NCBI RefSeq assembly: GCF_000204055.1
Contig: NW_006768766.1
Coordinates: 900,706 to 964,705, forward strand
Origin: Melampsora larici-populina 98AG31
Taxonomy: Eukaryota > Basidiomycota > Pucciniomycetes > Pucciniales > Melampsoraceae
Direction of reading: 5' to 3'
Length of the DNA stretch: 64,000 bases
Within the stretch, counting starts at the first letter, position 1; each line of letters opens with the position of its first letter. Shown here one piece after another: positions 23,344-40,962 of this stretch. The notes below the pieces were generated by a model that saw nothing but the letters and a program-made list of their open reading frames with translations, was not told the DNA's origin and searched no databases. Both the position numbers and the translations under genes were made by a program.

Positions 23344-23383
23344 CACAGTGTCCACCCAAATTGCGCCGGACGTCCGGCGAGCT
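23344..23383. repeat. left terminal inverted repeat of the giant element
   Basis: Forty bases beginning CACAGTGTCCACCC and ending GGCGAGCTT; it contains the palindrome CCGGACGTCCGG. Confidence 0.92.
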
Positions 23384-24045
23384 TAAAACTCCGCCACATG
23401 TGTGTATTTTTTGTGTTTTCCACAAAAACACGCCCGCCCTGAGCAGATGATATTGAGCGAAATAAGGCGGGTGAAACCTTTGTATCTCATGATCCTAAGG
23501 ATTCTCAAAGCGCGCAGCATGTATGCACCCTGAGCTGCTCACGAATGACTGTACAAGTTGTATGTCTTCGTCGCCTTTCTTTACCTTGGCAAAAAGGCAA
23601 AAGGATTGGTTTGGAGGCTTCCTCAACTGGAAAGCCTCCGAACTTTCATTTCATATGGGTCCCGAGCTATTGACTCCCCATTGTTGTTGATGTCTACAAA
23701 CCCTTTCTTTGCCTTTGAAAAAAGTCCGAAGGAGTTGTTCGGACTCCGGAGGCTTCAAGTGCCTTGTATCAAAAGCCTGCGAGCTTATCGAGTTTTGGCT
23801 ATAGCCACTAATCTTCCGAGATCCTTGTTGTTATATATTTGACATCATGTATGAAGATAGGAGGTTTGAAACGTGTATAAAGATAGGAAACTTAAAACAT
23901 GTATAAAAATAGGAACTTAAAACGTGTATGAAGGTGAGAAGTATATACAAGAAAGAGAGGAAAAGTTAACCAGGACTACAAACAAGCGAAAAAAGTAAGC
24001 AATCTGAAAACCGAGCATCATACAATGCCAGACCATTCTACTTCA
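23384..24045. repeat. subterminal region with hairpins and ~27-bp tandem repeats
   Basis: A stem GGAGGCTT with AAGCCTCC lies at 23613-23639, and a stem GTCCGAA with TTCGGAC at 23724-23744, followed by another CGGAGGCTTC. At 23846-23940 three to four units of about 27 bases occur (ATGTATGAAGATAGGA, GTGTATAAAGATAGGA and so on). CACTA elements usually carry subterminal repeats bound by their own proteins; whether these serve that role is not known. Confidence 0.6.
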
Positions 24046-25496
24046 TTATGTGTTTGAGTCATTTACAATCAATGTGAAGGGCGCGCTTGATGGATAGGCA
24101 GCCCAGAATATTTGACCTTTGTGTTCATTAAGGAACCAGCCATTGCGATCTCTGGACGTGTAAGGAGGAGGAAAGCCATCTGCCAAGAAAATACAAGCTG
24201 ACGAACCGAACTTGTACCGCTTATGAGGGTGTTCTATAAGAATTGAACGTTTAGAATGGGGTCTCAGCTAAATTGATATCGGCCTTTTGAAATATTTGTA
24301 CCAGTGTCCTCATCATCCATAGAGATTGCAAAGCGCCGTTTCCTGGCGCTGAGCACCAAAGTTTGACAAGAATTGTCCAAAGTGACAGGACCGGGCAACG
24401 CCAACCTGTTACGCTTGTAAGGTGGTACTATAAATAGAAAAAGATCAGAAGAGGTGATCTGAGGCAGAACTAAAGTGTTATATGCGTACCGCTGTCGTCA
24501 TCGTCCATAATCACCGAGAAGCAACGTTTCCTGGTTAACTGAGGAGACTGGTTTGAAGCGCAGTGAGCGTAAGGTTGAGGTGTTCGGGGGGTGATCTCTG
24601 GGGTGATTTCACTTGACACCTCCGAGCTTGTGATAGTTGTCGAGCAGGTGGAAGTCGAAGCAGATGGGGAGATAAGGTAAAGCTGATCAGAAGTTGAACA
24701 CTGCATGGTATGACAATGAGCGTAAGGTCAAGGTGCTCGGGGGGCAAGCTGTATGACAATTTGTTGCGTAGGCGGGCTAGACTCGTGCGCTGGGAGTGCC
24801 TGCCTTGGACAGGAAGGCGTAGGCGAACGACGATGTATTTCTCGGGCTAGCTGAATCCAATTCTGTTCTCCGGAGGCGTCCTGGGGTGTCACATCTGTTG
24901 AGACCTGAGAGCTTTCAATTGTTGTGAAGCGGGCGGGAGTTGAAAGAGGGGGAGAATCCTCGTTAAAATGGTTATAGTACCCACGGAATGTGGGAGTCAC
25001 AAGAGGGCCGGAGTAAATGCTCATGGGACTGAATTGAGTTGAAGGCGGACTGGATTCAACGCTTGTGGGACTGATTGGAGTCGAAGGTGGGCCGGAGGTA
25101 GGGGCCAACAGAGGAAGAGACGTGTGTGAAGTCACGGGTAGACCATAGACACTGGAAAAAGGAAGGTAAGTCGGGGTGACCAGGGAGGAGGTATCAATGC
25201 TGATGTAGGTGATCGGAGTTGAGGGGTGGGCAAAGCTAGTGGCCGACGAAAAACTGGAAGTGTGGGGAGGTGACGTTGATGAAAGGCCGATTGAGACAGA
25301 TGGGTCAAACCCATCTCTAGATCGGTGAAATTTGTTGGCTGCCACGGCTGTAAAGTATAAAAATAGGAACGGATGATAAGCAAATAGTGAAAATGAGATA
25401 GGGAAGATACTGAGTTCACTGACCAAGCCACGTTTTGGCTTTGGTAGCACACTTCTTGAAATAAGAGAGACTTGATTTGATTCTGATAAGCTTCAT
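24046..25496 (-). CDS. cargo gene A: Ser/Pro-rich protein with duplicated exons
   Basis: Five exons' worth of frame resolve into four segments with correct phases: 25496-25424 (MKLIRIKSSLSYFKKCATKA), 25347-24490, 24427-24302 and 24233-24046. The product is about 414 residues. Segment 2 is Ser/Thr/Pro-rich (SSPPSTQFSPMSIYSGPLVT) and carries one in-frame TGA at 24728-24730. The next parts are homologous modules: LTRKRCFSVIMDDDDSG, then PPYKRNRLALPGP plus ARKRRFAISMDDEDTG, then HPHKRYKFGSSACIF. The first two end at the same splice position. The C-terminus is FTLIVNDSNT. No known domain. The TGA means it is either decayed or the stop is read through. Confidence 0.55.
24560..24745. repeat. direct repeat CCCCCCGA-CACCT-ACCTTACGCTCA inside gene A
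   Basis: About 30 bases are duplicated 150 bases apart (near 24565 and 24715). In the gene A frame they encode PRTPQPYAHC and PRAP-stop-PYAHC. The TGA therefore replaces a sense codon present in the sister copy. Confidence 0.65.
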
Positions 25497-25538
25497 GATA
25501 TTGACAGGAGGTAAGTGAAAAGCTAAAAGCAAGTTGGG

Positions 25539-38588: not shown

Positions 38589-39232
38589 TTAATTGACAGG
38601 ATGTAGAGGTCAAGAGCTATGTTGGATCGAAAGATCTGATAAATTGTAGAGCTTTGTATAAGGCCAGCAAACCGGAAGAACTGACAAGTCGTACTGAAAT
38701 TGAATGCTCTGCTCCCAAACGTCAACAGTAGATGTACTCTCTCCAGATCAAGCCCGCTGGAAGATTTAAGAATTCTCTGAATTGGTCTCACGTGACTCAA
38801 AGATTCAGTACATAAACCTACACAAACAAATGGAGTCTTCGTAGAGCAATACAAACTCGCATTGGCACTTAACCTTAAAGAAGTATAAGGTGAAAATACG
38901 CGACCGAGGCATACTTTTACTTCATATAGAGGAAAAAATAACTGACTGAGGCAAAGTATATACATGCATGTTATAAGGGGGGAAACTGATGTAGACAAAA
39001 CTGATTGATNNNNNNNNNNNNNNNNNNNNNNNNNNNNNNNNNNNNNNNNNNNNNNNNNNNNNNNNNNNNNNNNNNNNNNNNNNNNNNNNNNNNNNNNNNN
39101 NNNNNNNNNTGGCGGTATGAAATCCTTCGTCGCATGCAAAATAAAGTGTTGAAATATTTGGATCAATCTGGAAGTACACAAGATTGTCAGCGACATGAAA
39201 AGATAGGGGAGCATGGCCATAGTACATACCTC
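38589..39232. other. interval with 100-base assembly gap
   Basis: Bases 39010-39109 are all N, exactly 100, as used for gaps of unknown size between contigs. Nothing else is evident; open frames crossing the Ns are artefacts. Confidence 0.9.
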
Positions 39233-39910
39233 TTAAATTCCATAGTAAGCACCGTAGTGATAGACAACATGGGATTGAAAGAGTTCTATGAGTTCTGCTT
39301 TCAGCGTGCCACACGGGATTTGCAGGTTTGGCTTGAAGTGCCAGAGTATTTGTCGAAGAAGATTTTGAGTGCACCAGACCGGTTGCCACTCAGGGGAAAG
39401 GTACATGCGGAGATTTGGGGGTAAGCTCCAGATGCTGGTCCAGAAGTAGGGATCCTCATGGACGGACGGAAGTGGGAGTCTGCGCCGGCGGATAGGTCTG
39501 CGGATGAGATTGGCACGCCGGGCGATTCTTGACGATCTACGCTGGAGGGGCCGATTGTTCCTTCTTGGTTGTTGAGCTACTTGATGATTTTGACGAAGTG
39601 GAGGCTGATGTTCTAATACATGAGGTTGAAGTTCTATCTCTTGATTTTGATGTTCTACGGCCACATCTTCATTTGGCACATTGGCGATTGCGAGGTCTTC
39701 AACTTCCGGTCGTTCTAATACATGAGGTTGATGTTCTATAGCTTGATGTTGATGTTCTACGGCCGCATCTTCATTGGGCACATTGCCAATTGCGAGGTCT
39801 TCAACTTCCGGTCGAGTTTGCTGACAACGTGGGCGCCTTCGGCTAATACGGGTGGTAGTGATGGAAGAGTTTCCCACCAAAGTGATATTACCATAGATGT
39901 TGATGGACAT
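39233..39910 (-). CDS. cargo gene E: basic protein with SAP/HeH-like C-terminus
   Basis: A single exon of 225 residues from ATG 39910. After a short start come two copies of a 34-residue repeat (RPEVEDLAIGNVPNEDAAVE, 102-bp offset), then an Arg-rich stretch (RRSSRIARRANLIRRPIRRR) that could bind DNA or act as a nuclear signal. The C-terminal part (LLRQILWHFKPNLQ-x4-TLKAELIELF) has the spacing of a SAP/HeH-type helix-extension-helix motif. It lies 3' of the assembly gap. If the motif is real, the protein could bind element ends; that is inference. Confidence 0.55.
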   Translation of the reverse strand: MSINIYGNITLVGNSSITTTRISRRRPRCQQTRPEVEDLAIGNVPNEDAAVEHQHQAIEHQPHVLERPEVEDLAIANVPNEDVAVEHQNQEIELQPHVLEHQPPLRQNHQVAQQPRRNNRPLQRRSSRIARRANLIRRPIRRRRLPLPSVHEDPYFWTSIWSLPPNLRMYLSPEWQPVWCTQNLLRQILWHFKPNLQIPCGTLKAELIELFQSHVVYHYGAYYGI

Positions 39911-40922
39911 GTTTCGATGTTGAGCTAGTGAAAATGAGATTGACCAAAATTTAGCTCAGAAATCAACAACAAAGCAGGTTAAAACAAATTGAATATGGAA
40001 AAAGAGGAGTCTTTGTGAATGAAGGAATTGAATCGAAAGGTTGTGTGACTAATACTGGAGCCTGAATAAAGCAGGATGAATAGGTAGTTGAGAGTTTAAA
40101 TACGGATCACTCACAATCCGCGGACTGTGAAGTCACAAAATAAAGACATTGGCAAAACAGAGCCTATTGTCTTGATCCACGGAGATGAGAATAACTGTTG
40201 ACGGAGAAGATTTGGGAAATTTAAACATAGGCGATTCGACTTTTGATGAACGGGGACTCTCGTATCTGTTGGAACCGTTATGTGATACATCATACGAGAT
40301 GTGATCTATCCTCGACTGTTGTTTTGAAGAATGGAGGGAAGTATCGCCGGTGGGAATCTAATTGCAGCAAAGGGGATGATGGAAGGGAACTCGCTCAAAT
40401 ACCTCATTCCTACTCCTGCAAAGAATGTGACAGAAGATACAGTCCTGCCAGATACACCTTTCACAGCCTTTCACGTTTGTCTTTCAAGGTCTCCTCGGGC
40501 ATTCGACTGGTCTGTATTGACTATATGTACATATGTAACAATGACCAAATCGAATCAAGCAATCTCAAAGATGATTCATGGGATAAAGAGCTATTGGTAA
40601 TAATGTAATGGAACGGAATACTAGGATATAAGCATATGAAATTTCCTAAAACCGGGCGGTACAAAGTGAAAGAACAAACAAAGAGCATACTCGTGGGTAA
40701 ACAGGGGTAAACAGTAATCCCCCAGGTGATGGCCAAAAACGGTCTTTCTCTATGAACGTACCATGTAGATCTTCATCGTGCTGATAGCTCAGACATGAGC
40801 AGTCCAATGCATAAGCACAAGACTCATGCGCGAGTTGATCTGGGCTCATCCTTAGCGGTGGCTGAGTTTTTTGATACCCGCAAACAAAAACTGCACAAAT
40901 GTTGCATGTCTGCTGTAAAGGA
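39911..40922. other. right subterminal region
   Basis: Two overlapping plus-strand frames (40243-40608 and 40331-40600) exist. The second, starting MEGSIAGGNLIAAKGMMEG, has the more protein-like composition but no motif. I do not claim either. Confidence 0.3.
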
Positions 40923-40962
40923 AGCTCGCCTGGCGTCCGGCGCAATTTGGGAGGACACTGTG
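40923..40962. repeat. right terminal inverted repeat of the giant element
   Basis: Forty bases, AAGCTCGCCTGGCGTCCGGC onward to GGACACTGTG, inverse of 23344-23383 with three mismatches. Confidence 0.92.

What the first reader, a model, noticed from the sequence alone, without database searches (positions are those of the whole stretch)
23344..40962. A 17.6-kb cargo-carrying CACTA transposon caught inside another transposase
Seen: 40-bp terminal inverted repeats (37/40), perfect TAT duplication, an uninterrupted CACTA transposase and at least four unrelated genes between the ends. The host gene's halves outside give a built-in empty-site check: HQHLCSFG on the right joins EKDDIDNLDF on the left after removing the element and one TAT. 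CACTA elements with 3-bp duplications are well known. One this large in a fungus, with several non-transposase genes including a divergent paralogue pair, would be a CACTA analogue of cargo elements such as Starships. Cargo function is inference.
Basis: partly seen in the sequence, partly recalled or inferred. Interest (0 to 1): 0.95.

Follow-up and report, generated by a model that had tools for sequence, protein, structure and literature searches.

The report
Large multi-gene CACTA transposon, poplar rust
A 17.6-kb jumping gene of a rust fungus is real and looks complete, but the extra genes it was thought to carry as cargo appear to be its own standard gene set, kept in the same order in sister copies in the genome.

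Summary
Window 23344-40962 is a CACTA/EnSpm element with both ends: 41-nt inverted repeats (38/41), TAT duplication, a Tnp2 transposase gene with no stop in its predicted exons, sitting inside another Tnp2 gene.

The cargo reading does not hold. Six other element-sized end pairs (16.6-25.2 kb) enclose the same genes in the same order and strands: E, Tnp2, S (opposite strand), B. S and B are homologues of each other without a Pfam family. Of 80 Tnp2 loci, 54 have B within 20 kb, 54 have S, 50 both (about 2.6 Tnp2-B pairs expected by chance); 44 of the 50 show one of three gene arrangements. B is about as constrained as the transposase (dN/dS 0.14-0.21 against 0.13-0.18). Short derivatives (0.9-3.0 kb) share the ends.

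Most likely it is an autonomous-type CACTA element with its own accessory proteins, inferred (not shown) to act at the subterminal CTSAG repeats as TNPA does in maize. Large CACTA elements with 4-5 ORFs are known from a red alga; what looks new is the conserved S/B pair.

The parts
23344..23384 (+). left terminal inverted repeat, begins CACAGTG, core TGCGCCGGACGTCCGG
40922..40962 (-). right terminal inverted repeat (38/41 to the left one)
23341..23343 (.). target site duplication TAT, left copy
40963..40965 (.). target site duplication TAT, right copy
39236..39955 (-). gene E: small basic protein (pI 9.5) with two copies of a 102-bp tandem repeat; the slot between the end and Tnp2 holds an E match in all 7 copies with both ends and in C172 and C56
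39010..39109 (.). assembly gap of 100 N, between E and Tnp2
34734..38588 (-). Tnp2 transposase gene, about 4 predicted exons (ATG at 38588, exon 1 225 nt), no stop in the exons; acidic candidates in VDWFNP, ADLPA and GERAIG (the DDE assignment is by eye)
33095..34129 (+). gene S: short paralogue of B, probably two exons, runs towards Tnp2
27073..30575 (-). gene B: long protein with an S/P/Q-rich N-terminal part, conserved basic helical core (27580-28404, pI 9.9) and last exon 27073-27516; 5' end uncertain, possibly up to about 31.8 kb
24731..25492 (-). F: S/T/P-rich ORF (43% S+T+P), weak matches in the same slot in C8a, C8b, C4 and C79; none found in C52 and C63
23439..23534 (.). subterminal CTSAG motifs at 23439 and 23530 (left end)
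40788..40866 (.). subterminal CTSAG motifs 97 and 171 bp inside the right end
40966..41919 (-). 5' part of the interrupted host Tnp2 gene
22512..23340 (-). 3' part of the interrupted host Tnp2 gene

Best explanation
The interval is one CACTA/EnSpm transposon with both ends, probably autonomous, of Melampsora larici-populina, which inserted into an older, probably already decayed Tnp2 gene of another element. Its non-transposase genes are not captured cargo but its own ancient accessory set: E, and the paralogous pair S and B. Shown here: ends, duplication, constant gene order in seven copies with both ends, co-occurrence of Tnp2, S and B in 50 loci, constraint on Tnp2, B and E, short derivatives with the same ends, and a subterminal motif. 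Inferred: the Tnp2 protein cuts and pastes at the CAC..GTG ends; the basic B and S proteins bind the subterminal CTSAG repeats and/or the transposase to assemble or regulate the synaptic complex, the job that TNPA does in maize En/Spm; the short derivatives move in trans.
For: Seven inverted end pairs enclose E>Tnp2>..<S..B> in the same order and strands: C2 (window) 17.6 kb, C52 16.6, C8a 17.6, C8b 18.2, C4 17.7, C63 23.6, C79 25.2 kb. 3-bp duplications are perfect in 5 of these 7 and in 5 of 6 short pairs whose two flanks I read. Of 80 Tnp2 rows, 54 have B, 54 have S and 50 have both within 20 kb, about 2.6 Tnp2-B pairs being expected by chance; of the 50, 8 show the window's order, 24 B>Tnp2>..<S, 12 S and B both upstream on the other strand, 6 other (table, tallied). 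Tnp2 and B distance matrices agree over 18 elements (Mantel r 0.93, p 1e-4). dN/dS Tnp2 0.13-0.18, B core 0.14-0.21, B last exon 0.20-0.42, E 0.24-0.41. CTSAG 29 times against 4.7 expected in bp 43-240 of 10 ends. B core strongly basic (+22), all-helical model. Nine short pairs of 0.9-3.0 kb with the same ends; the C3 and C172 right ends are identical over the stretch read.
Against: No function of E, S or B is shown; no Pfam family above cutoff, no PDB-sequence and no fold match for B. Two of the 9 loci with E and S in the window's positions (C172, C56) have no B hit within 20 kb; C172 is a 27-kb contig (list). 26 of 80 Tnp2 rows lack B and 26 lack S, and 22 of 76 B rows and 21 of 76 S rows have no Tnp2 row within 20 kb, so the link is strong but not complete. 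C4 and C63 show no duplication. Among the seven close copies the Tnp2 and B distances do not correlate (r 0.08, p 0.37): a star-like radiation or exchange. The seven large copies are 67-78% identical in Tnp2, so current mobility of the full element is unproven. The CTSAG motif was chosen after looking at the same ends, and two of the 10 ends (C56s, C29) are near-identical.
Confidence: 0.8

Rival explanations
1. A cargo-carrying element: E, S and B are captured host genes that give the fungus or the element some benefit, as in Starships.
For: Several genes other than the transposase lie between the ends; sizes of 16.6-25.2 kb are large for a DNA transposon.
Against: The same genes in the same order in 7 of 7 copies with both ends, and Tnp2+S+B in 50 loci, 44 of them in three arrangements. 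The two longest copies, C63 and C79, are longer in stretches between the conserved genes; C79 holds a broken RTC4-like fragment between Tnp2 and S, as expected of nested insertions, but these stretches were not read in full. The 22 of 76 B rows without a Tnp2 row within 20 kb were not inspected one by one, so an unlinked host source is not excluded.
Confidence: 0.06
2. S and B are element genes, but for escape from silencing or control of copy number rather than for transposition itself (compare the TET/JBP genes carried by fungal EnSpm elements, PMC12730594, passages read).
For: The two proteins are paralogues of each other; 26 of 80 Tnp2 rows lack each of them; fungal DNA transposons are known to carry TET/JBP genes, for which that paper proposes an anti-silencing role.
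Against: No enzyme domain recognised: no Pfam hit in S at E 0.1, and in 24 B members only one weak RHH hit; the B core is basic, helical in the model and has invariant Trp/Arg/Asn residues, more like a DNA- or protein-binding factor.
Confidence: 0.25
3. Two elements fused by misassembly at the 39010-39109 gap, or a chance pairing of unrelated ends.
For: There is a 100-N gap near the right end.
Against: E and Tnp2 lie side by side with the same spacing in other copies; the ends match each other and carry the same 3 bases outside; the two flanks are colinear parts of one Tnp2 gene.
Confidence: 0.02

Closest known systems
CACTA/EnSpm (TIR DNA transposons with Tnp2 transposase), fungal branch
   Same: CAC..GTG ends, 3-bp duplication, Transposase_21 domain, subterminal short repeats. 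EnSpm elements with CAC..GTG ends and 3-bp TSD whose transposases resemble Plavaka are described from Puccinia (PMC12730594, passages).
   Different: 17-25 kb with E, S and B genes; those in that paper are discussed for TET/JBP, which I did not find in the ORFs scanned here. I did not see the lengths or full gene content of the Puccinia elements.
Enlarged 16-20 kb EnSpm families with 4-5 ORFs of the red alga Chondrus crispus (cited in PMC6431247, passage read; original not seen)
   Same: Size and number of ORFs.
   Different: Different lineage; the ORFs could not be compared here.
Maize En/Spm (TNPA+TNPD; PMC1636069, passages) and soybean Tgmt* (20.5 kb, PMC2613891, passages)
   Same: Transposase plus a second protein type; subterminal repeats; 3-bp duplication; similar size for Tgmt*.
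   Different: S and B are encoded by separate genes on opposite strands. A relation to TNPA or TNP1 was not tested directly; there is only the absence of a Pfam hit.
Starships (Pezizomycotina giant cargo elements; traits recalled, and abstracts in the listing)
   Same: Large mobile element in a fungus with several genes.
   Different: Tnp2 transposase and CACTA ends instead of a tyrosine recombinase; constant own genes, no variable cargo seen.
Plavaka
   Same: Pfam Plavaka model matches the transposase above its cutoff (29.6 against 26.3 bits).
   Different: Reported Plavaka ends are TGT..ACA or CATCA..TGATG (PMC12730594); here CACAGTG..CACTGTG.

Membership tests
CACTA/EnSpm | 5'-CAC..GTG-3' terminal inverted repeats | tested here: met
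CACTA/EnSpm | 3-bp target site duplication | tested here: met
   window TAT; 10 of 13 end pairs with both flanks read (5 of 7 large, 5 of 6 short)
CACTA/EnSpm | Tnp2-type (Transposase_21) transposase | tested here: met
   PF02992 3.1e-20
CACTA/EnSpm | DDE residues with C(2)C motif between second D and E | tested here: inconclusive
   VDWFNP, ADLPA, CAHC and GERAIG read by eye in the ORFs; no structural or profile assignment of the residues was run
CACTA/EnSpm | subterminal short repeats | tested here: met
   CTSAG 29 observed, 4.7 expected in 10 ends, (motif found and counted on the same ends)
CACTA/EnSpm with TNPA-like partner | second element protein that binds the subterminal repeats | not testable with these tools
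   B and S are candidates; binding is an inference
Starship | DUF3435 tyrosine recombinase captain at one end (recalled definition) | tested here: not met
   no such Pfam hit among 20 window ORFs scanned, 15 of them inside the element; ends and TSD are of CACTA type
Starship | variable cargo between copies | tested here: inconclusive
   E, Tnp2, S, B present in 7 of 7 copies with both ends, which speaks against it; the stretches between these genes in the other copies were not read in full
Plavaka (PlavakaA/B) | TGT..ACA or CATCA..TGATG ends | tested here: not met
   against PMC12730594
TET/JBP-carrying EnSpm of rusts | TET/JBP dioxygenase gene inside the element | tested here: not met
   no Pfam hit to it among the 15 ORFs of the element scanned

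The most novel reading that the evidence does not exclude
S and B are an unrecognised, ancient, paralogous two-protein partner system of fungal CACTA transposases, analogous to but not derived from TNPA, that has co-evolved with Tnp2 through at least three gene arrangements; together with E it makes a four-gene transposition machine able to move 17-25 kb units.
Probability: 0.4. Interest if true: 0.6.

Novelty: new variant of a known kind. Interest (0 to 1): 0.45.

Why it matters
It removes a false lead (a CACTA counterpart of Starships) and replaces it with a testable one: a conserved accessory pair without a Pfam family in the CACTA elements of a rust genome that holds at least 80 Tnp2 loci. 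If B and S are transposition partners they would be a further solution, beside TNPA and TNP1, to the question of how CACTA ends are recognised, and might help explain how DNA transposons of this size stay mobile. They also give markers for annotating these elements, some of whose B genes stand in public databases as uncharacterised MELLADRAFT proteins.

Tried and rejected

Rows dropped before counting: Tnp2 80 of 82 rows (two partial rows, C15:1236533 and C21:464735, dropped), B 76 of 95 (the 19 weakest, mostly cross-hits to S genes, dropped), S 76 of 120 (44 weak rows, mostly cross-hits to B genes or fragments, dropped), E 45 of 46. Of the 40 end-pattern hits 8 stayed unpaired, among them a second right-end-like hit at C52:171724. 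Three short pairs (C27, C36, C12) were paired by position only; their flanks were not both read.
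Full report
What was checked. The window lies at C2:900706-964705 of a 98.3-Mb genome in 243 contigs. Three of six relatives of the element's B protein returned by the protein search are named Melampsora larici-populina 98AG31 and sit on contigs of 291,858 and 66,311 bases, exactly the lengths of C87 and C135 here; I take the organism as that poplar rust.

The element. The ends at 23344-23384 and 40922-40962 are the longest inverted pair in 20-45 kb (41 nt, 93%), flanked on both sides by TAT. 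The end core TGCGCCGGACGTCCGGYGAGCT has 40 matches with up to 3 mismatches in the genome and 1 for the reversed control. The transposase belongs to Transposase_21. Aligning copies supports an intron between its two largest ORFs, and the spliced window gene reads about 1,200 codons without a stop (the last intron is ambiguous).

The host site. The right flank encodes the 5' part of a Tnp2-type protein and the left flank the 3' part. Against relative P0017 they align side by side (217-298; 306-348; 350-394). No empty-site paralogue was found by DNA.

The 'cargo'. Querying the genome with the element's own proteins gave 82 Tnp2 matches, 95 for B, 120 for S, 46 for E and 7 for F; the tool calls such counts lower bounds. 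Seven end pairs enclose E, Tnp2, S on the other strand, and B, in one order. They are C2 (17.6 kb, TSD TAT), C52 (16.6, ATA), C8a (17.6, TAG), C8b (18.2, TTG), C79 (25.2, TTA), C4 (17.7, no TSD) and C63 (23.6, right end degraded, no TSD). Nine short pairs with the same ends: C3 (TAT), C14 (AGT), C21 (GTG), C29 (GTA) and C78 (TTT) with a duplication, C56s without one; C27, C36 and C12 paired by position only. What looked like several ORFs between 27 and 30.6 kb is one long B gene. S and B are homologous (profile comparison, probability 96%, E 2e-9, 156 columns).

How general it is. With the filtered lists (80 Tnp2, 76 B, 76 S, 45 E), 54 of 80 Tnp2 loci have B, 54 have S and 50 have both within 20 kb (about 2.6 Tnp2-B pairs expected by chance); E is near 20 of 80. 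The 50 fall into the window's order (8), B>Tnp2>..<S (24), S and B upstream on the opposite strand (12) and others (6). In the other direction 54 of 76 B rows and 55 of 76 S rows have Tnp2 within 20 kb. So B and S are largely, not wholly, tied to Tnp2.

Selection and co-inheritance. Between the window and six copies dN/dS is 0.13-0.18 for Tnp2, 0.14-0.21 for the B core and 0.20-0.42 for the last B exon; for E, against three copies, 0.24-0.41 (dS is often near or above 1, so these are rough). Tnp2 and B distances agree over 18 elements (r 0.93, p 1e-4) and within eight more distant elements (r 0.94, p 3e-4), but not within the seven close ones (r 0.08, p 0.37). The seven are 67-78% identical to each other in Tnp2 and 62-76% in the B stretch compared.

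Mechanism. Shown: ends, duplication, transposase gene, accessory genes, subterminal CTSAG enrichment (29 against 4.7 in 10 ends). Inferred: cut-and-paste by Tnp2; B and S, basic and (B) helical in the model, as end-binding or synapsis partners comparable in role to TNPA, whose binding to DNA is reported to be stabilised by TNPD (PMC1636069, passages). TNPA and TNP1 of different plant CACTA elements are reported to share little similarity (PMC2613891, passages), so an unrelated partner protein here would be in keeping with that.

Known or new. EnSpm elements with CAC..GTG ends, 3-bp duplication and Plavaka-like similarity are described from Puccinia (PMC12730594, passages). A review cites 16-20 kb EnSpm families with 4-5 ORFs in Chondrus crispus (PMC6431247, passage). 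A rust TE survey names CACTA among superfamilies found only in Pucciniales within Pucciniomycotina (PMC12210899, passages). Size and gene number are thus not unprecedented. Eight literature searches listed no paper whose title or opening abstract describes this S/B pair; I read passages of five papers only, and Repbase itself could not be searched.

Verdict. It is a large autonomous-type CACTA family with a conserved accessory gene set of unknown function.

Noticed in passing
window 43410-45031: RTC4-like domain gene just outside the element; the query matches 150 places in this genome (150 of 161 candidates scored), an expanded family; whether it is tied to any transposon was not tested.
   Followed up: partly
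window 423-857 and C2:894936-895430: Decayed B and S fragments (several stops) near and just outside the left edge of the window: remains of another such element.
   Followed up: no
C3:930724-933117, C14:78839-81220, C172:25006-25027: Two 2.4-kb non-autonomous pairs carry an end identical over the stretch read to that of the large C172 copy, suggesting mobilisation in trans.
   Followed up: partly
C79:29903-30241 (inside the 25.2-kb element): A broken RTC4-like fragment lies between Tnp2 and S; nested insertions may explain the extra length of C79.
   Followed up: no
window 55439-56095: Sad1/UNC domain gene (2.9e-27), probably an ordinary nuclear-envelope gene.
   Followed up: no
window 61749-62360: ORF with a weak Myb/SANT-like match (PF12776, 3e-4, slightly below cutoff).
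   Followed up: no
terminal repeats of the family: The end core contains the perfect palindrome CCGGACGTCCGG in many of the 40 pattern hits, a possible protein-binding site at the very ends.
   Followed up: no
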